Assembly: GCA_020833055.1 (NCBI GenBank)
Contig: JAJHQZ010000001.1
Coordinates: 1 to 64,000, forward strand
DNA: 64,000 nucleotides
Source: Candidatus Korarchaeum sp.
Lineage (GTDB): Archaea > Korarchaeota > Korarchaeia > Korarchaeales > Korarchaeaceae
Reading direction: 5' to 3'
Made by a program: the position numbers and the translations under genes. This document shows positions 941 through 18,861 of the stretch, in pieces; the stretch's first letter is position 1, and each line of letters opens with the position of its first letter. The notes under the pieces are model-generated. The model was given only the letters and a program-made list of their open reading frames with translations, ran no database searches and was not told where the DNA came from.

Positions 941-991
941 CTGAAAATAGTAGCGCTCAGCACAGTCAGAGGATTGACCGGTCGGCGTCAG

Positions 992-3900
992 CACGCACTC
1001 GGGCTTTGGGAGGGGTAGGCTGAGGCAGTCCGCCGGAGCTCCTGCCTTACACCACCCCCCCATCGAACGGGTCTTCTACCCGCGCCCTAACCCCACTAGG
1101 GGCGAGGCCGCCTATTTTCGGGGGCCGCTTCGGGCTTAGATGCTTTCAGCCCTTATCGGCTGGGGCGCGGCTACCCGGCGCCGCCCTCTCGGACGACCGG
1201 TACACCGGAGGCCCCGGCACCCCGTTCCTTTCGTACTGAGGGTCCCTTCCCCTCAGGCGGCCTTGCAGCCCCAACAGGGAGAAACCGAACTGGCTCGCGA
1301 CGTTCTGAACCCAGCTCACGTTCCCCTTTGATGGGCGAACATCCCCACCCTTGGAGGCTGCTGCACCTCCAGGATGGGCAGTGCCGACGTCGGGGAAGCA
1401 AGCGGCGGGGCCGATGGGGACTCTCGCCCGCCACAGCTCCGTTACCCCTGGGGTAACTTTTTTGTCGTACCCGGCCCTCACCGAGAGGGCTCGAGTGTTC
1501 GCTAGGCCCGGCTTTCACCCCTGGATCCCACGCTCTTAGGGATCCAGTCAGGCGAGCTTTTGGCCTTGCCCTCTACGGCGGGTTTCTGTCCCGCCTGAGC
1601 TCGCCTTAGGGCGCCCCTGATACCTTTGCAGGGGCGTGCCACCCCAGCCAAACTGCCCACCTGGCCCTGTCCCGCCGGAGCGGTTAGTGATACAGCTGGA
1701 GAAGGGCGGTGTTCCATCGTCGCTTCAGCCACCCCCTCGAGGGTAGCCACATCGCTCCCGCCTACCCTCTGCATCCCCAGCTGTACCACAAGACCAGGCT
1801 GCAGTGAAGCTCCACAGGGTCTTCTCTCCCCGTTGGGGCGTCCCGGTCTGTGCACCGGGATGCGGGTTCACCGGCCCGCGGGAGGGGACAGCGGGCACCT
1901 CGTTAAGCCATTCATGCACGCCGATTTTTATTCGGCAAGGCATATGGCTACCTTTCCCCCGGAGGTCCCCCGAGGGGACCTGCCGTTAAGAGAGTCAGAG
2001 TTACTCCCGGCTTTCACCGGCCCTTCACCCCGTTGTACCGGGGCTTCAGGTACCGGCATTGGCCAGGCCTCATCCCCCGTACACACCCTTGCGGGCTCGC
2101 GGGGAACTATGTTTTTGTTAAACAGTCGGGCGCCCCTTGTCACTGCGACCTGCGGACCCCCTTTCGGAGGAACGCAGGCACCCCATCTCCCGAAGTTACG
2201 GGGCCAATTTGCCGAGTTCCCTCTCCCGCGTTAGGACCGAGAGGCCTTAGGCCTTCTCAGCCAGCGCACCTGTGTCGGTTCTCGGTACGGGCACCGGGGA
2301 TCGCTCCCCACCCCCTTTTCAAGGTCCCCAGGCATCGGCCGAAGGCCCCTAAAGGGGCCCCCATCACGCCTTCAGCCGCCTCTCACCATTACGGTTCTCA
2401 GCGGCCTTAAGCGCTTGGACGGGTCGCCCGCCTCAGCGGGCCCCCGCTCAGCCTAGCCCGAGGCGTCAGGGGTGGGGCCTGCGTCGCCGCCTACCCCGGT
2501 GGCGCCGGAATATTAACCGGCTTCCCTTTCGGCGGCTACCAGTTGGGTGCCGCCTTAGGACCGGCTGACCGCCGGCTGACGAAGCATTGCCGGCGAACCC
2601 TGGCGCTTCCGGCCGTGGGGATTCTCACCCCACTTCGCTGCTACTACCGCCGGGATCTGCAACACGCACCGGTCCACCGGAGCTCACGCCCCGGCTTCCG
2701 CCCGGTGCGCGCGCCCGCCTACCCAGCGTCCCACTGGGACGCTGCCGGGGTATCGGTGCCTGGCTTCAGCCCCGACTCATTTTCGGGGCCTCCCTCCTCG
2801 GCGGGTGAGCTTTTACGCACTCTTTAAAGGATGGCTGCTTCTAAGCCTACCTCCCCGCTGTCTTAGGAGGGAGACGCCCTTCGGATTTCGGCACTTAGCC
2901 AGGACTTAGGGACCTTAACCCCGGTCTGGGTTGTTCCCCTCTCGGCGACGGAGCTTCCCCCCGTCGCCCGGCTCCCCGCTTCTACGGGGGAGGCGCATTC
3001 GGGGTTCGAGAGGGTGGCGGGGCGGAGCCCCTTACCCACCCAATCGTTGCCCTACCACGCCCCCACCCTCCGCGGAGGCCCTCCTGCGAGAGGCTTCGGC
3101 GGGAACCGGCTATTGCCGGGCTAGATTGGTCTTTTGCCCCTACTCCCGGGTCACGGGAGGGATCTGCACCTCACCACCCCTATCGGGCCTCCACCGGGCT
3201 CGCGACCCGGCTTCGCCCTGCCCAGGAGTAGATCGCCCGGCTTCCGGTCTCACGAGCGTGACTCAGCCCCCTTTCAGAGGCGACCCCCTCGCACCGCTGC
3301 GGGGTCCTCGCTTTCGCTCCGCCTTCGGGCTCCTAGCCCTTAGGCTCGCCACGCCCGTGAACTCCCCGGCGCGTGTTTCAAGACGTACGGGGCGACTCCG
3401 GTCAGCTCCCTCGTACCGACGCCTCGCGGCGTCTTCCTTCGGGAGCTTCAAACCTTGAGAGCCGCCTCTCCTATGACCGCCTGGTTTCAGGCTCTTTTCA
3501 CCCCGCGCCAGCGGTACTTTTCAGCTTTCCCTCACGGTACTCAGTTCGCTATCGGTCTCGGGACGTATTTAGCTTTGGAGGTCGATGACCCCCGGATTCC
3601 CGCGGGTATTCCAACCCGCGGTACTCGGGAGAAGACCGGACCGCTGATGGGTTACGCCTACGGGGCTCTCACCCTCTCTGGCGGGCCGTTCCAGGCCACT
3701 TCGGCTTCCCCACCAGCGGCTCCTGGTCCCCCCTCAACCCCACATCCACCCGCTCTCGCGAGCGGGAGTTCGGTTTGAGCTCCGCCCCTTTCCCTCGCCG
3801 GTACTCAGGGCATCCCTATTGGTTTCTCTTCCTCCCCCTACTGAGATGCTTCAATTCGGGGGGTTCCCGCTCCCTGCCGGGAGCGCCTAGCGGCGGCTAT

Positions 3901-4018
3901 CGCCATTCGGGGATCCCCGGATCTAAGCCTGCCTGCGGCTCCCCGGGGCTTATGGCAGCTTGCCACCCCCTTCATCGGCGCCCGAGCCGAGCCATCCACC
4001 AGGCGGCGTAGCAGCGTG
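992..4018 (-). rRNA. rrl: 23S ribosomal RNA
   Basis: The minus strand carries a full-length archaeal large-subunit rRNA of about 3.03 kb. Its start near 4018 resembles the conserved 5' region (read on minus: CGCCTGGTGGATGGCTCGGC). The terminal helix is visible as GCACGC near the 5' end and GCGTGC at 991-996. The gene is flanked by a long processing stem (952-991 with 4019-4058). No insertion or homing intron is evident from length. Ends are placed by the stems and are accurate to perhaps ten bases. All open frames inside it are spurious. Confidence 0.95.
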
Positions 4019-4146
4019 CTGACGCCGGCCTTCGGCTCCTCTGACTGTGCTGAGCGCTCATCTTTCCTCGCGCTTCAACGAGCGAGGTTTCTCCTCGCTC
4101 GCATCATCCGAGTTCGGATGGTCCCCTACGCGGGTGGTATATTATG
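4019..4146 (-). other. 16S-23S spacer with rRNA processing stems
   Basis: The 128-base spacer holds no tRNA. Bases 4038-4058 pair with 952-972 (21 bp) and 4019-4027 with 983-991 (9 bp), closing a helix around 23S with an internal loop of about ten bases on each side. Bases 4111-4138 form the 3' half of the 16S processing stem. A local hairpin is formed by CGAGCGAGG (4079-4087) and CCTCGCTCG (4093-4101). Together these are the expected cleavage sites for the archaeal splicing-type endonuclease. Confidence 0.85.
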
Positions 4147-5642
<1,496 letters not shown>

Positions 5643-5820
5643 TCAGGAGTACAGCCGCAACCCACCATTCGCGGGGACCATCCGAACTGTCTCGAACATG
5701 AGCCTTTGGCTCATGTTCACATAACCACATTATACTGTACCCACCGCTGGAAGTAGGGTCCTCATACGTCAGGCGTAAGCCTTCATACTCAGACCCCCTG
5801 CCGGGTAGCAGTGGGCCAAG
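5643..5820 (-). other. Pre-rRNA leader with bulge-helix-bulge motif
   Basis: The transcribed leader of the rRNA operon pairs with the spacer downstream of 16S. GGGACCATCCGAACT (5674-5688) pairs with AGTTCGGATGGTCCC (4111-4125). The 4-bp helix CGCG (5670-5673 with 4129-4132) is flanked by 3-base bulges ATT (5667-5669) and CTA (4126-4128), followed by CCACC/GGTGG. This is a canonical bulge-helix-bulge. Just outside it is a perfect hairpin, GAACATGAGCC (5694-5704), loop TTT, and GGCTCATGTTC (5708-5718), whose role I do not know. Confidence 0.85.
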
Positions 5821-11321: not shown

Positions 11322-13460
11322 ATGCGTAGCTCAGTGTTAGCTCTCCTGTTACTCTCGCTCCTGATACCACTAGCCCTCGACAGAGTCAATGAGTGCTCAG
11401 GGAATAGGTGCTCTGGAAGCATAAGCCTGAGCGCGAGCGTCCCCGCAGCGGTGAAGCCCGGTCAACGCATAGATGTCTCAGCTAGTCTAGATGGAGGCTG
11501 TGAGTGCGGTGCCACTTACTCTGGCCCTTACATCAACGCTGAAAATGGAGCCTGTCAGACTTCGAGGAGCGGGACGTACGCATCTGGCTACTGTACCGTA
11601 AGTGATGTGCCCGGGGGCAGCTTCCGTATATGCGCTTCAGGTAGCATAAGCGGGCCACCATGTTATACAGGCGATACTCCGGGGAGCACGGGCCCCCTGA
11701 GTAAGTGTTCCTCCGCAGCTTATATAGTGAGCGTCCCCGATTTCTCAGCATCAGCTAATCCGACGGCTTTGCCCAAGCAGGGCTCTGTAACAATAACGGC
11801 TAGCGGCTTAAGCGCTATAGATGATGGTAAAGGTAGTCTAAGCGTTGTAGCTGACTTCAACGGGAACACTTACACCTTAGCTAAAACCGGATCTGGAAGC
11901 TTCAGTAGCGCGATAAATTACGATATGAGGGACAAGCCCGCAGGAACAATGCAAATAACTGTTACAGCCACCAAGACATACTCAGGAGTCTCCGCCTCTA
12001 AGAGTAAGAGCATAAGCGTCACGCTTCTAGGTTCACCGCCTTCAATAAGCGTAAACGCACCTAACGAAGTTAAGAGAGGGGACGCTATAACGGTAACTAT
12101 AGATGAGCCCGATGGCGATACTGTCACAGCTACGCTGAAGATAGGCGATAAGAGTTACTCTTTAAACAAGGGAAGTAATTCTATAACGATAGATCTGCCT
12201 AAGGGAGAGTATACAGCCTCAGTTCAAGCGAACGATGTGGATGGGAGCTCTAGCAAGAGCTTCAGCATAAGAGTGAGGGGTTCACCACCCTCGGTTACGA
12301 TAGACGCTCCGAATCAGATGAAGAGAGGCGAGGGCTTTACCGTCACTGTGACTGAGGAGGATGGGGATAGCGTTACAGGTACGCTAACTATAGGAGATAA
12401 AACATTCAGTATAGGGAAGGGGAGCAATTCTATAAGGATTCCAGCTGATTTGAGGGCCGGAGATTACACTATCTTAGCTATAGCTAGGGATGAGGATGGG
12501 GGGAGCGAAGCTGAAGCATCATTCACTCTAGTCAATGAGGAGCCTAAAGTCTCAGTGAGCGTGGATAAGACTGAGGCGAAGGTGGGCGAGACTATAACTG
12601 TGACGGTAGAGGCTAGCGATGATTCTCCAGGCCTAAATGTGAGGACTACCATCGGAGATAAGGAATTCAGCGGAACTGGTAGCTTCGAATATACGCCGAG
12701 TAAAGAGGGCACCTTAACGATAAAGGTAGTGGCTACTGATATGGATGGCGTAACTGTGACGAAGGAAGTAAGCGTGGAAGTGACTCCAGGAGGAAGTAGC
12801 TCAGGCGGGGGAGGTGGCAGTTCAGGAGGCTCTTCAAGTGGGGGATCCTCAGGGGGTAGCGGAGGCTCAGGTGGAAGTAGCTCAGGCTCGGGCAATTCAA
12901 GTAGCTCATCAGGTGGCTCTAGCTCAAGCTCGAATAATAGCTCATCAGGTAACTCCTCAGGGGTGAGTGCTAACAGCATTAATAGCGGCACTAGCATGAG
13001 TGCCTCAGGCACCAAACTCAGTGCCTCTAGCACTAACGGGGTAAGGCTGGAGGTACATCCAGAGGAGCCTTACGTGGGAGATGAAGTAACTGTGAAGGTG
13101 TTCTCGCCGTATAAAGGCATGCTCGTCCTGATAAACCCGGAGAAGAGGGAAGTCGCTAACACTGGGCTCACTATACTAAAGTATGTGGTGGATGAGGAAG
13201 GGATTTGGATAGCGAAATACTACTACAATGATGGGAAGCTCAGAGAAGTTAGCTTGAGCTTCACAGTAAAGGCCAGGCCTCCAGTAGAGGCGATCGCAGC
13301 GAATAATACTACGAATAGTAAGCTTGGTAGCTCTTCAGAGCTCGAGGCTTTAAAACTACCCTGCGAAGTCGCAGCTAGGAACGAGTCCTCGATACCCTGG
13401 TACCTGCTAGCGATAACTATGCTCTTCGCAGCTCTAGCGATAAGGAGGTTGAAATTATGA
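11322..13460 (+). CDS. Large repeat-containing surface protein (adhesin-like)
   Basis: A predicted exported, membrane-anchored cell-surface protein of 712 residues. A signal peptide (1-20) precedes a cysteine-rich region (25-129, about ten Cys). Then come a beta-sandwich-like segment (130-237) and three related repeats of about 83 residues (238-320, 321-405, 406-489) with 'GDxhTVTh' and 'A.D.DG' motifs like cadherin/PKD-type modules. A Ser/Gly/Asn linker follows (490-560), another beta module (574-651) and a C-terminal transmembrane helix (692-708) with a short basic tail. It heads an operon whose next genes encode a secretion ATPase and membrane platform. Binding target unknown; adhesin is an inference from architecture. 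Confidence 0.8.
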   Translation: MRSSVLALLLLSLLIPLALDRVNECSGNRCSGSISLSASVPAAVKPGQRIDVSASLDGGCECGATYSGPYINAENGACQTSRSGTYASGYCTVSDVPGGSFRICASGSISGPPCYTGDTPGSTGPLSKCSSAAYIVSVPDFSASANPTALPKQGSVTITASGLSAIDDGKGSLSVVADFNGNTYTLAKTGSGSFSSAINYDMRDKPAGTMQITVTATKTYSGVSASKSKSISVTLLGSPPSISVNAPNEVKRGDAITVTIDEPDGDTVTATLKIGDKSYSLNKGSNSITIDLPKGEYTASVQANDVDGSSSKSFSIRVRGSPPSVTIDAPNQMKRGEGFTVTVTEEDGDSVTGTLTIGDKTFSIGKGSNSIRIPADLRAGDYTILAIARDEDGGSEAEASFTLVNEEPKVSVSVDKTEAKVGETITVTVEASDDSPGLNVRTTIGDKEFSGTGSFEYTPSKEGTLTIKVVATDMDGVTVTKEVSVEVTPGGSSSGGGGGSSGGSSSGGSSGGSGGSGGSSSGSGNSSSSSGGSSSSSNNSSSGNSSGVSANSINSGTSMSASGTKLSASSTNGVRLEVHPEEPYVGDEVTVKVFSPYKGMLVLINPEKREVANTGLTILKYVVDEEGIWIAKYYYNDGKLREVSLSFTVKARPPVEAIAANNTTNSKLGSSSELEALKLPCEVAARNESSIPWYLLAITMLFAALAIRRLKL

Positions 13461-14095
13461 GAGTGAGGAGAGCTCTAGCTTTAGCTCTCATATTTTTAGG
13501 GCTTTTCCTCGCTTATCTGGGTACGAATACACTAGTATGGCATAAAGTGGGCTTCCTCGAAGCTGAGACCTACGAATTACTGGATTGCAACACTACTTAC
13601 GTTAAAGTCACTGGGAATGGAAGCGTATGCTTGAGCCTCTACAGAATAGAAGCTAGGAAGGTAGCTGAAGGCGATAATTTGAGCGTGAAGGCTAAGCTAC
13701 CGATGGTAGTAGCCTCAGATGATGTGAAAATCAATGGAAGAAGCTATAAGCTCGTGGATGGAGCTACCCTACTCTTCAGGACTGAGGAGCTGAATATAGA
13801 GGGTAGAGCTTCAGTTTACGATATCAACTTAGTCAGGGAGAAAGCTAGGGTGGAGGAAGAGGAAGGATGGGAAAAGGTCTACTGCACTCCCGGATCCAAA
13901 ATTTTGTTGAGCGGGGATAACGTGAGATACGAAGCCCAAGCCTATCAGGAATCTCTATTCCCTCCCCTAGGCCTCGCAGTAATAATAGCCGGATTGCTCT
14001 TATCTTTATTGAGAAGGGGCGAGGAGGGAGCTGAAGTTGATAGAAGCAGAGAGGAGAGCGAAGCAGATAGCTCAACAGCTGTTGAGGAGATATAA
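13457..14095 (+). CDS. Bitopic/two-helix membrane protein of the pilus-like locus
   Basis: No family recognised. The 212-residue protein has a transmembrane helix at about 6-27 and another near 172-190. Between them is a domain of about 140 residues, predicted outside, with four cysteines and several N-glycosylation sequons. The tail is charged and cytoplasmic. Its ATG overlaps the adhesin stop (ATGA), and its 3' end overlaps the ATPase gene by 59 bases, so it is translationally embedded in the locus. A structural or coupling subunit is plausible. Confidence 0.75.
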   Translation: MRVRRALALALIFLGLFLAYLGTNTLVWHKVGFLEAETYELLDCNTTYVKVTGNGSVCLSLYRIEARKVAEGDNLSVKAKLPMVVASDDVKINGRSYKLVDGATLLFRTEELNIEGRASVYDINLVREKARVEEEEGWEKVYCTPGSKILLSGDNVRYEAQAYQESLFPPLGLAVIIAGLLLSLLRRGEEGAEVDRSREESEADSSTAVEEI

Positions 14096-15545
14096 GGGGA
14101 GAGCTCTCAAGGTCAGTTTCGAGAGGAGGGGAGCGAGGTTAAGTAAGATAAGGGAGATGTTTCCAAAACCTCTAAATTTTTTTAAGGGTAATAGGGAGCT
14201 GGAGCGGGTTACTAAAGAGCTTTACCTTTTCTTCGCTCTAGATGAAGTGGAGAAGCTCTTAAGGAAGCTCAGGGAGAAGGGGGTCAGGATACCGAGGCCC
14301 AAGATACCCTTCGGAAGGGAGGAGGAGATAGCAACGCTTCAGCTACCTCCTCCCCCTGAGGGAATTGAGATACCCTTCCCCGGAGGGAAGCTCATACTTT
14401 CAGGTAGAGAAGCCGTTTATTACCCTCACAGCTATCCAGATCGCTTGATCCAGGCTCACATCTTAGCGAATATGTTGAAGGGCATATATCCAGCGAGTTA
14501 TGAGGATCAGGGGGATCTGCTCTGGAAGAGCGTCGAGCTCAGGAAAGCTAAAGCTATGGAGTATCTTGAGGAGGTCGGCTGCGAGGATGAGGAATTAGCT
14601 TTAGAGGCAGCGATACGCTCAACTAAGCTCTGGCCCGCTCTAGCCATAATGATGGCTGAGGATGTGACTGAGGGCTACGCTTCCCTCAACTCCCCGCTCA
14701 TACTGGATCACATAATCTACGGGAGGTTCGAAGTGAGGAATTACGTATTCGACGAGGAGGAGTTGGAGAAGTTCAAGACATTTATCGAAGCTGATATCAA
14801 CGCTGGCTTCGATTTCAGGAAGAGCTTAGCTGAGGTAGACATAACTCTAGGGAGTAATAAGTTCAGGATAGCTTTAGATATACCTCCAGCGAGCAGAGGG
14901 GCGTTGGATATAAGGAATTTATCCGCTATATCGAAGCTCTCCCTACCGAGATTGATAAAGCTCGGCAGCATAAAGGAGGAGGAAGCCTCTACTATCCTCA
15001 AGAGTATAGAATTAGGGGAACCTATCTTGATCTTCGGTCGCACTGGCGTCGGGAAGACTACGCTAGCTAACGCCTTGCTCGCCTGCCTCCCTAAGGAGCT
15101 CAGGTTGATAAGCGTCGAGGAGGTCAGAGAGATAGAGGATCTGAGCATTTACGGGATGCATCACAGCCCTTACGAATTCGCTGGGAAGTTCGATTTCATC
15201 CGATTTTTGCTTCACAGGAATCCTGATATCGTATTTTTGGGGGAGATACTGACTAAAGAGGCTGCTGAAGCCTTCAATCTAGCTCATAGCTCCGGTTTAA
15301 GAGTGATAGCTACAACGCATGCTAGGGGCTTTCAGGAGCTCGTGGAGAAGTTCGAAGCTTTCGGGCAGGAGCTGCCCAGGGATACTCTAGCTATAATGAT
15401 GAGGGATAAGAGAGTAGTCGAGATGAGGAGGTGGAACGATGGCTGGCATCCAGTTGATATGAACTTAGAGTACCTCGACTTCTTGAGGAAGCTCAGGGGG
15501 GCTGATACGAATGAGGAAGTCGCTAGGAGGAAGGGCGGAGAGTAA
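14037..15545 (+). CDS. Type II/IV secretion system ATPase (GspE/VirB11/FlaI-like)
   Basis: A cytosolic hexameric ATPase that powers assembly or secretion in type IV pilus-like machines. The 502-residue protein has an N-terminal half of lower conservation and a C-terminal motor with Walker A GRTGVGKTT (about 333-341), an Asp-box segment ISVEEVREIED, Walker B-like NPDIVFLGEI (about 390) and a His-box THARG. The TTG start at 14037 follows GAGGAGGGAG at good spacing. The first ATG (14157) has no usable ribosome site. It partners with the membrane protein encoded immediately downstream. Confidence 0.9.
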   Translation: MIEAERRAKQIAQQLLRRYKGRALKVSFERRGARLSKIREMFPKPLNFFKGNRELERVTKELYLFFALDEVEKLLRKLREKGVRIPRPKIPFGREEEIATLQLPPPPEGIEIPFPGGKLILSGREAVYYPHSYPDRLIQAHILANMLKGIYPASYEDQGDLLWKSVELRKAKAMEYLEEVGCEDEELALEAAIRSTKLWPALAIMMAEDVTEGYASLNSPLILDHIIYGRFEVRNYVFDEEELEKFKTFIEADINAGFDFRKSLAEVDITLGSNKFRIALDIPPASRGALDIRNLSAISKLSLPRLIKLGSIKEEEASTILKSIELGEPILIFGRTGVGKTTLANALLACLPKELRLISVEEVREIEDLSIYGMHHSPYEFAGKFDFIRFLLHRNPDIVFLGEILTKEAAEAFNLAHSSGLRVIATTHARGFQELVEKFEAFGQELPRDTLAIMMRDKRVVEMRRWNDGWHPVDMNLEYLDFLRKLRGADTNEEVARRKGGE

Positions 15546-16422
15546 GACCGTGAAGAGGATAAAGTTAGTCCAGAAATTTGTGATAGGTTACCTAAGCTCT
15601 CCAGCTCTTGGCTTAATGGCTTTGAACAAGTACGGGAGCGTGGCCGTCGAAGGAATAACTGCGAAAAAAGCGGTTTACGATGCCTTAGGTTTCCTCAGGA
15701 AATACTTAGCTGGCTTATTGGAGGGGGCTGAGGAGGAATCGGCTACGAAGGCAGCTCTGACTTTGATCTCGAAGCTCTATGAGGAGGATTTAAAGGCCAG
15801 GAGGAACTGGATAGAGATAGGGATAACTCTATCCTTAGGTTTATCTCTATTCATAGCCTTCCTCAGCTACAGAATAATTATACCTCCCTTCCTCCCCCTC
15901 CTCCTGCTCTCATCCTACCCCCTCATGCCAGGATATAGCGAGCTCAAGATAGAGGATCCGAACATAGCTGATGCTATGGCCAGCGATTTGGAGAGAGGAT
16001 CCGGAGTTGTATACGCTCTGAGGCAGCTCAAATTATATGAAGCTAGCGTAGTAGATGACGCTGAACTACCAGAATATTTCGAGTTCCTGAAAATAGTATC
16101 GGACAGGGAGGCGTTGAAGAATATGATGCGCAGAACTGCTTCAGTACTGAGGGCTTTAAGTGAGATAATAGATGAGTGGAAGGCCAACATAAAATCCACT
16201 CGCATCCTCCTCTTAATTTCCCTCATCGTAGTCGCAGCGATAAACGTAGCCCTCAGCTATATTTTGGGACAGCTGGGCTTAAACACTCCTCAGTCGACCC
16301 TCTTCTCTCTGGGATTAGCGGTAGCTATACTGATATCGAAGCCCCTGGGATATTCAATCCAGGCCGCTGCAGCTTATTCCTCAGCGTTCCTATTAGTCAG
16401 CTACTTCTTCCATCTCTTATAA
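15511..16422 (+). CDS. GspF/TadC-like membrane platform protein
   Basis: The inner-membrane platform on which the ATPase is expected to act. The 303-residue protein has a soluble helical N-terminal region (1-90), two adjacent membrane helices (about 95-140), a cytoplasmic type II secretion F-like helical domain (about 145-225) and two to three further helices (230-303). It has a single F domain, half the size of the archaellum FlaJ protein, so it resembles TadB/TadC more. The ATG lies within the last 35 bases of the ATPase gene. No second F-type gene is nearby. Confidence 0.8.
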   Translation: MRKSLGGRAESKTVKRIKLVQKFVIGYLSSPALGLMALNKYGSVAVEGITAKKAVYDALGFLRKYLAGLLEGAEEESATKAALTLISKLYEEDLKARRNWIEIGITLSLGLSLFIAFLSYRIIIPPFLPLLLLSSYPLMPGYSELKIEDPNIADAMASDLERGSGVVYALRQLKLYEASVVDDAELPEYFEFLKIVSDREALKNMMRRTASVLRALSEIIDEWKANIKSTRILLLISLIVVAAINVALSYILGQLGLNTPQSTLFSLGLAVAILISKPLGYSIQAAAAYSSAFLLVSYFFHLL

Positions 16423-16449
16423 AAAAGAAAAAGAGGAGAAGAGAGCTTT

Positions 16450-16719
16450 CTATTTCCCGGACGTAGTATTCCCTGCGGTAGTCGTAGTATTTGTTGCAGT
16501 CCCTCCTTTACCTCCTCCGAAGAGGATATTATCTATAGAAGCAGTGAGCCAATCGAGGAAATTGTTGAAACTGTTCCATGCATTGCCTACGTCGACCCAC
16601 GCCCTAGCCCCGGCCTCTTGCGCTATCTTCCACGCCCCTTCCGCTAGCATGAGGGGGGCTGAGATTACGAGAGCTACCGTTATCAGGACCAGGAGTATGG
16701 TCTCTATAGTCTGTTGCAT
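16450..16719 (-). CDS. Small pilin-like membrane-anchored protein, opposite strand
   Basis: An 89-residue protein encoded against the operon. Its N-terminus, MQQTIETILLVLITVALVIS, is a membrane helix that aligns position by position with the proteins at 16947 and 17332. The rest is a short Trp-containing helix and a Gly/Thr/Asn-rich tail with N-glycosylation sequons. Small size, N-terminal helix and glycosylation-prone tail suit a major filament subunit, but there is no K/R-G prepilin cleavage motif. It has its own start on the right (about 16720-16822), allowing separate expression. Function unproven. Confidence 0.65.
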   Translation of the reverse strand: MQQTIETILLVLITVALVISAPLMLAEGAWKIAQEAGARAWVDVGNAWNSFNNFLDWLTASIDNILFGGGKGGTATNTTTTAGNTTSGK

Positions 16720-16822
16720 GATAGTATACTTGGTGTAGGAACTTAAAGCTCACTATATTTTTGAAAGAACTTTCTTATTTTCGAGAAACCTTAAGGGTTT
16801 AAACAGTGAGAACTACGCTCTT

Positions 16823-16963
16823 ATGATGAAGCTCATATACTCGCTACTGCTCGGCATGCTCCTAATCCTGATCTCGCTATCATCAGCCCCCCTCTACTAT
16901 CCCTTAGCCGCGGCTCTCTTCTTCGTCCTGCTTTGGAGGGAGTTGAATGATTCTCTCGATTGA
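16823..16963 (+). CDS. 46-residue membrane peptide
   Basis: The ORF starts at ATG 16823 (or 16826) and encodes a hydrophobic peptide beginning MMKLIYSLLLGMLLILISLS, followed by a second hydrophobic stretch ending in WRELNDSLD. Two membrane helices fit. It is the first reading frame of the second half of the locus, and its stop lies inside the next gene (17 bases overlap), suggesting coupled translation. A TATA-like TTTTTG/TTATTT region lies at 16758-16775. I recognise no family. Confidence 0.55.
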   Translation: MMKLIYSLLLGMLLILISLSSAPLYYPLAAALFFVLLWRELNDSLD

Positions 16964-17348
16964 GAAGGTCCTGCTGACGTTGATAGGATTGGCCACGATT
17001 ATCGCGATATTGCCAGCGATAAATCAGGGGATGGCTCAGGTAGCGGAGAAGAGGGATCAGAATTGCCTCAATGTCGCTGCGAGGGCAGTCGATCTAGCTA
17101 TAACTAATAGTATCGGAGGTGGTGTCGCTTCGAGCTACGCATTCCTACCAGTTAGAGTTACGTATAGATGCGAGAACGGAGCTGTATACCTTGAGGCAGG
17201 AAATGCGTCCGCAATTCTAAGCTACCCGTTCCAATTGAGCTGTTCCGGAGAGGCTTACCTTTACGGTAGGTTCGTAGCCTCATGGCGTCGCTCCGCGGAT
17301 GGCTCAGCTATAGTCGAGTTGAGGTGGTCGGGTGGAGGGGAGCATTAG
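16947..17348 (+). CDS. Pseudopilin-like protein
   Basis: A 133-residue protein with an N-terminal membrane helix (about 4-24, starting MILSIEKVLLTLIGLA) and an outer domain predicted to be beta-rich, with four cysteines. The helix begins almost at residue 1 and carries a Glu at position 6, recalling the processed N-terminus of type IV pilins, yet there is no basic prepilin leader. Overlaps on both sides (16823 ORF and 17332 ORF) place it firmly in the operon. A minor pilin or pseudopilin role is an inference. Confidence 0.65.
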   Translation: MILSIEKVLLTLIGLATIIAILPAINQGMAQVAEKRDQNCLNVAARAVDLAITNSIGGGVASSYAFLPVRVTYRCENGAVYLEAGNASAILSYPFQLSCSGEAYLYGRFVASWRRSADGSAIVELRWSGGGEH

Positions 17349-17523
17349 GGGGATACTCTTAGATCTGATGACTTTAGCTATCGTCCTAGCTTTAATAACA
17401 CTCCTGACACTAGCGGATAAGCTCTTCGATGAGAGCGAAGTTGAGGAGATCCTAAAAGCTATAGAGGAAGTTCAAAGGCTGGCTGAGTCCCTAGGGTTAG
17501 ACGCTAGTGGCTATGGTGGTTAA
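17332..17523 (+). CDS. Small membrane-anchored coiled-coil protein
   Basis: A 63-residue product starting at GTG 17332, with a membrane helix (about 5-28) and then an acidic amphipathic helix (KLFDESEVEEILKAIEEVQR). Its start MEGSIRGILLDLMTLA aligns with the N-termini of the proteins at 16947 and 16450. It overlaps the preceding gene by 17 bases. No family recognised. Confidence 0.55.
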   Translation: MEGSIRGILLDLMTLAIVLALITLLTLADKLFDESEVEEILKAIEEVQRLAESLGLDASGYGG

Positions 17524-17524
17524 T

Positions 17525-17593
17525 ATGGATGAACTCGAGCTCTTAATAGTCGTAGCTGCCCTCAGCTTCCTGATAATCTGGGCGTTAGTATGA
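17525..17593 (+). CDS. 22-residue transmembrane micropeptide (putative)
   Basis: From ATG 17525 a 22-codon frame encodes MDELELLIVVAALSFLIIWA plus two residues, essentially one membrane helix with an acidic N-terminus. An in-frame ATG at 17513 would give 26 residues. Its stop TGA overlaps the ATG of the next gene (ATGA at 17590), the same coupling used by the larger genes here. It could be a true subunit or only a coupling frame. Confidence 0.4.
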   Translation: MDELELLIVVAALSFLIIWALV

Positions 17594-17844
17594 GGCTCCT
17601 ATTAGCTCTACTCATAAGCGTTTTCTTGCTCCTCCTCGTATTCCTGAAGCCCATCTTCATCCACCAGGGTTATCAGGTGGAGTGGAAGGAGGAGGCTGCG
17701 TTGAAAGCGTTAGCCCGAGTTAAGGAGCTCGGATATAAGTTACTGATGAACGCGACAGTGAAGGAATGCGGCTCCTCTGAGATAGCTTACTGCCTCATCA
17801 TCCCAGGGCCTAACGGATTTTTGAAAGTCGAGGTGAGGGGATGA
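17590..17844 (+). CDS. Small bitopic pseudopilin-like protein
   Basis: An 84-residue protein: N-terminal membrane helix (about 2-20), then a helix (WKEEAALKALARVKELGYKL) and a short domain with two cysteines (CGSSEIAYC) that could form a disulphide. It is coupled to the next gene by ATGA. No family recognised; its size and topology match the other anchored proteins of the locus. Confidence 0.6.
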   Translation: MRLLLALLISVFLLLLVFLKPIFIHQGYQVEWKEEAALKALARVKELGYKLLMNATVKECGSSEIAYCLIIPGPNGFLKVEVRG

Positions 17845-18635
17845 GGGAAGCCTTGATAGTGCTCTTCGCTTTAACGCTGGCCTTCTTCTTAGTTACTCAT
17901 TATACGCCTCAGGCGGAGTATTATGAGTATAAGGGTATGTTGAGAGCATACTCTTTATATGCTGAGCTCCAGTCCATCGAGCCTAGAGCTCTGATATACG
18001 CTAGGTATAAAGTTGATAGCTTCCTCTACTCAATGAATGGCTCACCCTGCGACTCACTCCCGAGAATAGATGATAATGAGTTCAGGGAAACGATCGCTAG
18101 CGATTTGAGCGATAAGGCCTTCCTTCCATCCATAGATCTGAGCTTCGAAGCCTTCGAAACTCGCGGGGGAGAAAAAGGCTATTTTGGGGAGAGTTGTAGG
18201 AATGGAGGCATAGGCTTCACTGCAAAAGGGAGAGTGAGCATAGAGGATGGATTAACGGGGATAAGGGGGGAGCGTAGCATTGATGCGATGGGATGCCAAG
18301 TGACGGCTTACTACAGGATGAAGAGGGTGCTTGACTGGCTCGAGAGGGATATAAAGGCCGCGGTCCCTAGGTGCTCTAGACATTTAGACTCATCGAATCT
18401 ATCAGCTTTCTTCAGCTGCCTCAAGGAAGCGATAGCGGAGATGAGGAAGGAGTACGCTTCGGAGGATTTGGAGCTCAGGATAAGTTTTAGTCACTTCTAT
18501 TGGTTTGAGGATGAGGAGCCTAGAGTCTATCTGCACTTCTACATAACTCTGAAGGATCCCTACGCAGTCATAATAGCTAACGGGAGGGAGTATAAGGGTT
18601 TCGTGTGCTTGAGGGAGATGGAAATTGGATCCTAG
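17841..18635 (+). CDS. Membrane-anchored extracellular protein of the pilus-like locus
   Basis: A 264-residue protein with an N-terminal hydrophobic helix (about 3-20) and a large outer domain with six to seven cysteines. The domain ends in beta-rich segments (LELRISFSHFYWF, PRVYLHFYITLKD). It is the largest of the anchored proteins and might be a minor or tip subunit, which is an inference from order and topology only. It starts at ATG 17841 (ATGA overlap) and its end overlaps the next gene by 11 bases. Confidence 0.65.
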   Translation: MREALIVLFALTLAFFLVTHYTPQAEYYEYKGMLRAYSLYAELQSIEPRALIYARYKVDSFLYSMNGSPCDSLPRIDDNEFRETIASDLSDKAFLPSIDLSFEAFETRGGEKGYFGESCRNGGIGFTAKGRVSIEDGLTGIRGERSIDAMGCQVTAYYRMKRVLDWLERDIKAAVPRCSRHLDSSNLSAFFSCLKEAIAEMRKEYASEDLELRISFSHFYWFEDEEPRVYLHFYITLKDPYAVIIANGREYKGFVCLREMEIGS

Positions 18636-18861
18636 CTCCCTTTTCTTCGAATATCTGAGAGGAACCATTGCATTCATATTATCTAATTTACGTGAACTTC
18701 TGAGAGGTTTATGTCCCATTATAGAACACCTCTTATCCTTAATGATAATAGTGCTTGTGATAGTAGCAGCGATCCTCAGGCCGCTCTCTGAGAACATTAG
18801 TGAAGAACTTTTAGCACTTGCAACCCTCTTAATTGTGGCGTATATAATCCTCTCAGTTTAA
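18625..18861 (+). CDS. Small two-helix membrane protein, end of operon
   Basis: A 78-residue product with hydrophobic helices at about 36-52 and 62-78, after an amphipathic N-terminal region. The start is TTG at 18625 within the preceding gene; GAGGGAGATGG lies nearby. It closes the locus, three bases from the convergent gene's stop. No family recognised. Confidence 0.55.
   Translation: MDPSSLFFEYLRGTIAFILSNLRELLRGLCPIIEHLLSLMIIVLVIVAAILRPLSENISEELLALATLLIVAYIILSV

What the first reader, a model, noticed from the sequence alone, without database searches (positions are those of the whole stretch)
11322..18861. A compact type IV pilus-like surface system with unusual subunits
One plus-strand run of overlapping genes encodes a repeat adhesin, a two-helix membrane protein, a GspE/FlaI-type ATPase, a single-domain GspF-like platform and six or more tiny membrane-anchored proteins. 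The motor is clear from Walker and His-box motifs. The rest has no family I recognise. No prepilin peptidase, archaellum Fla gene or second F protein is present. Together they could build a thin filament or a short adhesion/secretion device of a kind not yet described.
Basis: partly seen in the sequence, partly recalled or inferred. Interest (0 to 1): 0.78.

Follow-up and report, generated by a model that had tools for sequence, protein, structure and literature searches.

The report
Archaeal pilus with pre-trimmed building block
This cluster encodes a korarchaeal type IV pilus machine whose main filament protein is encoded without the leader peptide that such proteins are described as always carrying and having cut off, so this filament may be built without the usual processing step.

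Summary
The genes are real, intact and under purifying selection. The host is a Korarchaeum-like archaeon (class Korarchaeia). They form a complete type IV filament (T4F) system, conserved across the phylum sample. The ATPase was found in 23 of 26 class genomes, and the small-protein module runs in one fixed order in every genus examined and in a second class.

A prepilin-peptidase homologue exists elsewhere in the genome with its catalytic motifs intact. The major pilin is the minus-strand gene at 16450-16719.

The surprise is that pilin. In every relative but one the same protein carries a prepilin leader (MQRRKG|VTGTLEQALL...). In the window's clade (four genomes, including a closed 1.59 Mb chromosome), and separately in one more distant genome, the leader is absent: the initiator Met sits at mature position +1, and in-frame stops lie upstream. 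One minor pilin is leaderless across the class. A two-helix subunit has lost its Sec-type signal in the same clade.

Verdict: a new variant of a known kind, probably a filament assembled from unprocessed pilins. Protein-level proof is missing, and the retained peptidase is unexplained.

The parts
11322..13460 (+). Surface adhesin, 712 aa: N-terminal signal segment, PKD/Ig-like repeats, Ser/Gly-rich linker, C-terminal membrane anchor
   Evidence: Pfam PKD 4.8e-10; homologues directly upstream of the ATPase in most species of the genus
13457..14095 (+). Two-helix membrane protein (212 aa; N- and C-terminal TM, external domain between, acidic cytoplasmic tail)
   Evidence: No family match; conserved between adhesin and ATPase
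14037..15545 (+). Assembly ATPase (GspE/TadA/ArlI/VirB11 type), 502 aa, TTG start, overlaps the gene before
   Evidence: T2SSE 3.7e-14; Walker A, HRNPD/GE and TTH motifs conserved in 18 homologues; PDB 2oap 4.2e-22, FlaI 4ii7 1e-20; 23 of 26 class genomes
15511..16422 (+). Membrane platform (GspF/TadB-TadC type), 303 aa, two half-modules in one gene
   Evidence: T2SSF 1.1e-3, below curated cut-off; columns 7-129 match the first and 149-308 the second half-gene of relatives, E 1.7e-5 and 1.7e-6
16450..16719 (-). Major pilin, 89 aa, leaderless: initiator Met at mature position +1 (M|QQTIETILL), Glu at +6, Asn/Thr-rich tail
   Evidence: Only match of the pilin profile in this genome (7.9e-28); in-frame TAG TGA upstream and no start codon between; leadered orthologues in relatives; dN/dS 0.17
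16823..16963 (+). 46-aa membrane peptide, first gene of the minor-subunit module
   Evidence: Small hydrophobic peptide at the same place in the other species of the genus
16947..17348 (+). Minor pilin, 133 aa, leaderless, Glu at +6
   Evidence: 20-member family starting at +1 in nearly all genomes; N-terminus homologous to the pilin; AlphaFold2 pLDDT 89: helix 2-55 plus beta head
17332..17523 (+). Small monotopic membrane protein, 63 aa, minor pilin-like
   Evidence: Same place in the module across the class
17590..17844 (+). Small monotopic membrane protein, 84 aa, minor pilin-like
   Evidence: Same place in the module; dN/dS 0.06
17841..18635 (+). Large minor pilin-like subunit, 264 aa: TM helix, long helix, two alpha/beta halves
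   Evidence: Profile in 23/26 class genomes, 15/15 of the best and in a second class; AlphaFold2 pLDDT 91; no PDB fold match
18625..18861 (+). Two-helix subunit, 78 aa; relatives carry an additional cleavable Sec-type signal that is missing here
   Evidence: Stop codon a few codons upstream; clade members G019/G007 match the mature part of the signal-bearing homologues of G018, G009 and G015 in 2-46 of 2000 shuffles; G000 itself not directly

Best explanation
The locus encodes the single type IV filament machine of a Korarchaeum-like archaeon. Inferred mechanism: the ATPase (14037-15545) drives the two-module platform (15511-16422), which lifts pilins out of the membrane into a thin filament. 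A conserved set of pilin-like minor subunits (16823-18635) primes or caps it, and the repeat adhesin with its two-helix partner sits at the tip or base. In this clade the pilin leader has been lost exactly, so translation starts at what was mature residue +1 (Met in place of Val/Ile/Leu). The pilin is then inserted directly as a signal anchor and can be polymerised without prepilin-peptidase cleavage. Shown: gene content, homology, conservation, absence of the leader, purifying selection. Inferred: that the protein is made and polymerised as encoded, and that the product is a filament.
For: Motor; no other pilus-type ATPase was found in this genome (the only other match looks like the archaeal PIN-domain family). 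Platform. Pilin: the profile finds one gene in the genome, this one. Stops lie upstream in G000, G006 and G019. Every other species of the genus with a found pilin has a leader such as MRRRRG|ITGTLEQALL, the other genera of the family and one other family have leaders too, and so does the second class. On the ATPase tree the leaderless species form one clade (support 98/98) plus one separate genome. The minor pilin at 16947 is leaderless across the class and its N-terminus is homologous to the pilin (0 of 5000 shuffles in G009), so the machine appears to accept unprocessed subunits anyway. All genes are under purifying selection.
Against: The peptidase homologue is kept in this clade with both Asp motifs, so something is probably still processed. 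No protein or filament data. Without the basic leader the positive-inside rule would not obviously place the N-terminus in the cytoplasm. Foldseek found no significant PDB match for the two predicted minor subunits.
Confidence: 0.68

Rival explanations
1. An ordinary type IV pilus: the true major pilin is another, leadered gene elsewhere, cut by the orphan A24 peptidase, and the leaderless gene at 16450-16719 is only a minor or base subunit.
For: The peptidase is intact and conserved as an orphan gene in the clade. Archaeal major pilins can be stand-alone genes (PMC4858521).
Against: The pilin profile finds only this gene in the genome; Class_IIIsignal and Pilin_N find nothing in it, though both models are weak here; in relatives the single orthologue is the leadered pilin.
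Confidence: 0.2
2. A short endopilus used for protein secretion or DNA handling (pseudopilus-like) rather than a long surface filament.
For: A rich set of minor subunits, including a large capping-type one; no long filament is documented here.
Against: An adhesin is linked to the motor; the pilin is short and ends in an Asn/Thr-rich tail like those of relatives, as in surface pili; no secreted substrate gene is conserved beside it.
Confidence: 0.2
3. A decaying system: leader loss and loss of the adjacent peptidase are early steps of pseudogenisation in this clade.
For: A dedicated peptidase gene stands beside the ATPase in other genera and is gone here.
Against: The open reading frames are intact in four genomes and dN/dS is 0.06-0.38, pilin 0.17.
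Confidence: 0.05

Closest known systems
Archaeal type IV pili (Archaeal-T4P; Makarova 2016 PMC4858521, Denise 2019 PMC6668835)
   Same: VirB11-type ATPase, platform with T2SSF-like modules, short pilins, several minor pilins, linked adhesin
   Different: Major pilin and one minor pilin have no class III leader; no peptidase at the locus; small subunits match no Pfam, NCBIfam or PHROGs family
Epd / Tad (T4cP) pili
   Same: Very short pilin with no room for a beta head; platform split into two genes in korarchaeal relatives; MinD-like ATPase next to the locus in some relatives
   Different: Platform is one gene in the window and no MinD/TadZ-like gene at the locus; the ATPase is far below the TadA family cut-off (49.5 of 373 bits)
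Archaellum (Arl/Fla)
   Same: Homologous ATPase; FlaF/FlaG are monotopic accessory proteins and FlaF has a partial archaellin domain (PMC4307647)
   Different: No ArlH or other archaellum gene, no archaellin; ATPase 48.6 of 550 bits against the FlaI model
Sulfolobus Bas, Ups and Aap systems
   Same: Crenarchaeal-type T4P with ATPase and platform
   Different: BasE model 21 of 1000 bits; no subunit family match; Ups and Aap not tested one by one

Membership tests
Type IV filament superfamily | Assembly ATPase of the GspE/VirB11 family | tested here: met
Type IV filament superfamily | Polytopic platform with T2SSF modules | tested here: met
   T2SSF 1.1e-3 (below cut-off); both halves matched to the split platform genes of relatives
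Type IV filament superfamily | Pilins with an N-terminal hydrophobic helix and conserved Glu | tested here: met
   Glu at +6 rather than the usual +5
Type IV filament superfamily | Prepilin with class III leader ending in Gly/Ala (described as invariable, PMC10191384) | tested here: not met
   Absent in the window clade and in G002; present in the other relatives
Type IV filament superfamily | Prepilin peptidase | tested here: inconclusive
   None at the locus; one A24 homologue elsewhere in the genome with catalytic motifs; substrate unknown
Tad / Epd pili | Two separate platform genes | tested here: not met
   One gene in the window; two in G001, G003, G024, G025 and the second class
Tad pili | TadA-family ATPase above curated cut-off | tested here: not met
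   49.5 bits against 373
Archaellum | FlaI/ArlI motor above cut-off and an archaellum gene set | tested here: not met
   48.6 of 550 bits; none of the other locus proteins matches an archaellum family
Bindosome (Bas) | BasE ATPase above cut-off | tested here: not met
   21 of 1000 bits
Type IV filament superfamily | A helical filament is formed | not testable with these tools
   needs microscopy

The most novel reading that the evidence does not exclude
A natural type IV filament that has dispensed with prepilin processing. The major pilin starts at its mature N-terminus, a minor pilin does so throughout the class, and a two-helix subunit has lost its Sec signal in the same clade, so the machine assembles subunits straight from insertion. 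Leader loss appears to have happened twice (the window's Korarchaeum clade; G002).
Probability: 0.5. Interest if true: 0.84.

Novelty: new variant of a known kind. Interest (0 to 1): 0.68.

Why it matters
The leader peptide and its peptidase are treated as universal, defining parts of type IV pili (PMC10191384: prepilins 'invariably display' the signal). Closely related species with and without a leader on the same pilin are a natural experiment on why processing exists: membrane targeting, topology, timing, or exposure of the N-terminal amine that pairs with Glu5. The system also gives a phylum-wide subunit set, in no protein family library searched here, for Korarchaeia, whose surface biology is little known.

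Tried and rejected
The TrbC/VirB2 idea for the last small gene gave only E 1.2 and is not claimed. The second ATPase on C3 was considered as a second pilus motor and rejected: its start looks like the archaeal PIN-domain ATPase family, and its neighbours include translation and ribosomal genes. Absence of any peptidase from the genome, the first idea after reading the locus, was wrong. FlaFind-type matches in the window's 63-aa and 264-aa small proteins are not conserved in relatives and were dismissed. Foldseek gave no significant match for either predicted subunit. The first genome-contig scan with one ATPase sequence found nothing; the second, with a profile, found named korarchaeal contigs, then only distant Heimdallarchaeota and bacterial relatives. 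Non-canonical start codons upstream of the pilin were checked: ATC (G000) or ATT (G006) directly before the ATG would add no leader.

Full report
Observation. One of these, 16450-16719, is on the minus strand. Pfam finds PKD domains in the adhesin, T2SSE in the ATPase (3.7e-14), a sub-threshold T2SSF in the platform (1.1e-3) and nothing convincing in the rest; NCBIfam and PHROGs agree. Between the window and its nearest relative all genes are conserved with dN/dS 0.06-0.38, so they are genes under selection, not chance frames.

Host. The ATPase search covered 26 genomes of the same class. B14_G2 is treated as Korarchaeota in PMC10469681. G006 is a single contig of 1,590,757 bases, which by my recollection is Ca. 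Korarchaeum cryptofilum OPF8; I could not check that figure here.

Conservation. The ATPase is in 23 of the 26 class genomes at 36-100% identity. The 264-aa subunit family is in 23 of 26, and in all 15 of the most complete ones, and reaches two genomes of another class. Its neighbours form a module in fixed order: 46-aa peptide, 133-aa, 63-81-aa, 84-93-aa, 264-aa, two-helix protein; the 46-aa peptide was seen only in the genus. The module stands next to the ATPase in the window's clade, in genera g2 and g5, in G002, and in the second class, where the order is ATPase, platform half 1, platform half 2, minor subunits. In most other species of the window's genus it sits at a separate place, while adhesin, two-helix protein, ATPase and platform stay together.

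Platform. In several relatives the platform is two genes of about 160-230 aa. Profile comparison matches them to columns 7-129 and 149-308 of the one-gene platform (E 1.7e-5 and 1.7e-6). Denise et al. (PMC6668835) describe the same kind of fission for Tad and Epd. So 'single-domain' and 'no second F' are misleading: the window has both halves in one gene.

The pilin. A profile of the minus-strand protein and its relatives finds exactly one gene in the window genome and at least one in 24 of 26 class genomes. In the other species of the genus it reads MQRRKG|VTGTLEQALLIAVTLAFFLG..., MRRRRG|ITGTLEQALL... and so on; in g2, g3, g5 and family f3 the leader is longer and ends DERG|V or DESG|L; the second class has SNKG|VSEVIGEALL. 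In the window the protein is M|QQTIETILLVLITVALV. Its Met lies at +1 of the mature forms and Glu at +6 in the same register. Upstream of the ATG the frame hits TAG TGA eleven codons back with no ATG, GTG or TTG between (G000), a stop five codons back (G006) and three codons back (G019); in G007 the frame is open but does not fit the class III motif. A simplified scan with the FlaFind motif gives no hit for these four or for G002; a few obviously leadered ones (G001, G021, G024) also miss its strict letters. In G002 (another family) a GTG start at +1 with a stop four codons upstream shows a second leaderless case. The ATPase tree puts the four species in one clade (98/98) and forces two changes of state, though G002 is a long branch and its genome is only 66% complete. 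Since the second class and family f3 are leadered, loss is the simplest direction.

Other unprocessed subunits. The 133-aa minor pilin starts at the equivalent +1 position in nearly all 20 homologues (the start is uncertain in G005). Its N-terminus is homologous to the pilin's in the same genome (G009: score 59, shuffle mean 19, 0 of 5000 as high; window 7 of 5000). Its predicted structure is one helix from 2 to 55 and a beta head, pLDDT 89, which is the pilin layout, although Foldseek finds no PDB match. The last gene, 18625-18861, corresponds to a protein that in other species has a Sec-type signal before its two helices. The G019 and G007 versions match the mature part of those from G018, G009 and G015 in 2-46 of 2000 shuffles, and stops lie just upstream in all four clade members; the window's own copy is too diverged to show this directly.

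Peptidase. PF01478 finds an A24 peptidase in 23 of 26 genomes. In G001, G002, G003, G004, G005 and G024 one stands beside the ATPase. In the window's clade the place after the platform gene is taken by the pilin gene, and only an orphan peptidase remains, on another contig, with both Asp motifs (YDLRDRQVPD, SGEAD). It is conserved in G006, G007 and G019, so it probably works on something. I did not find its substrate: Class_IIIsignal and Pilin_N find nothing in this genome, but these models are weak in this group.

Mechanism. By homology the ATPase and platform extract pilins from the membrane; the minor subunits prime or cap the fibre; the adhesin provides binding. These steps are inferred from the known superfamily (PMC10191384). 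The new step is that the pilin needs no cut: Met1 replaces the usual hydrophobic +1 residue and its free amine could still pair with the Glu. How it is oriented without a basic leader is open.

Literature. PMC10191384 says pilins are made as prepilins which invariably display the class III signal. Makarova et al. note archaea with a secretion ATPase but no peptidase (two nanoarchaea, one Nitrosopumilus), which may be related cases. Two searches for leaderless pilins found none; the library lacks most subscription papers, so this is weak evidence of novelty.

Verdict. New variant of a known kind. Machine identity is near certain; that the leaderless pilin is the working subunit is likely but unproven.

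Noticed in passing
L105:8947-9603 (window genome, contig 4, 43.4-44.1 kb): Orphan A24 prepilin-peptidase homologue with both Asp motifs, conserved in G006, G007 and G019; its substrate is unknown although the pilin lacks a leader.
   Followed up: partly
L169:6753-6968 and L052 (G002): A second, apparently independent leaderless pilin in another family, in a 66% complete genome that keeps a peptidase next to the ATPase.
   Followed up: partly
L044 and L045 upstream of the ATPase; L294 and L295 downstream of the minor module: MinD/ParA-like ATPase and polytopic membrane proteins beside the pilus locus in other genera and a second class (TadZ-like?), absent from the window locus.
   Followed up: no
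L202-L204, L209, L211, L212: In other species of the genus the minor-subunit module is preceded by a conserved 458-473-aa secreted protein with a C-terminal anchor, possibly a second adhesin.
   Followed up: no
L303:1161-1493: In the second class a signal-bearing two-helix protein resembling those of other Korarchaeum species lies directly next to the leadered pilin, suggesting it is a true filament or base subunit.
   Followed up: partly
L169:7527-8972: ORF beginning LKVVTFGKIGGGCVDGDSTILT looks like it holds an intein start.
   Followed up: no
window 987-5643 (-): Complete archaeal 23S and 16S rRNA genes; ordinary.
   Followed up: yes
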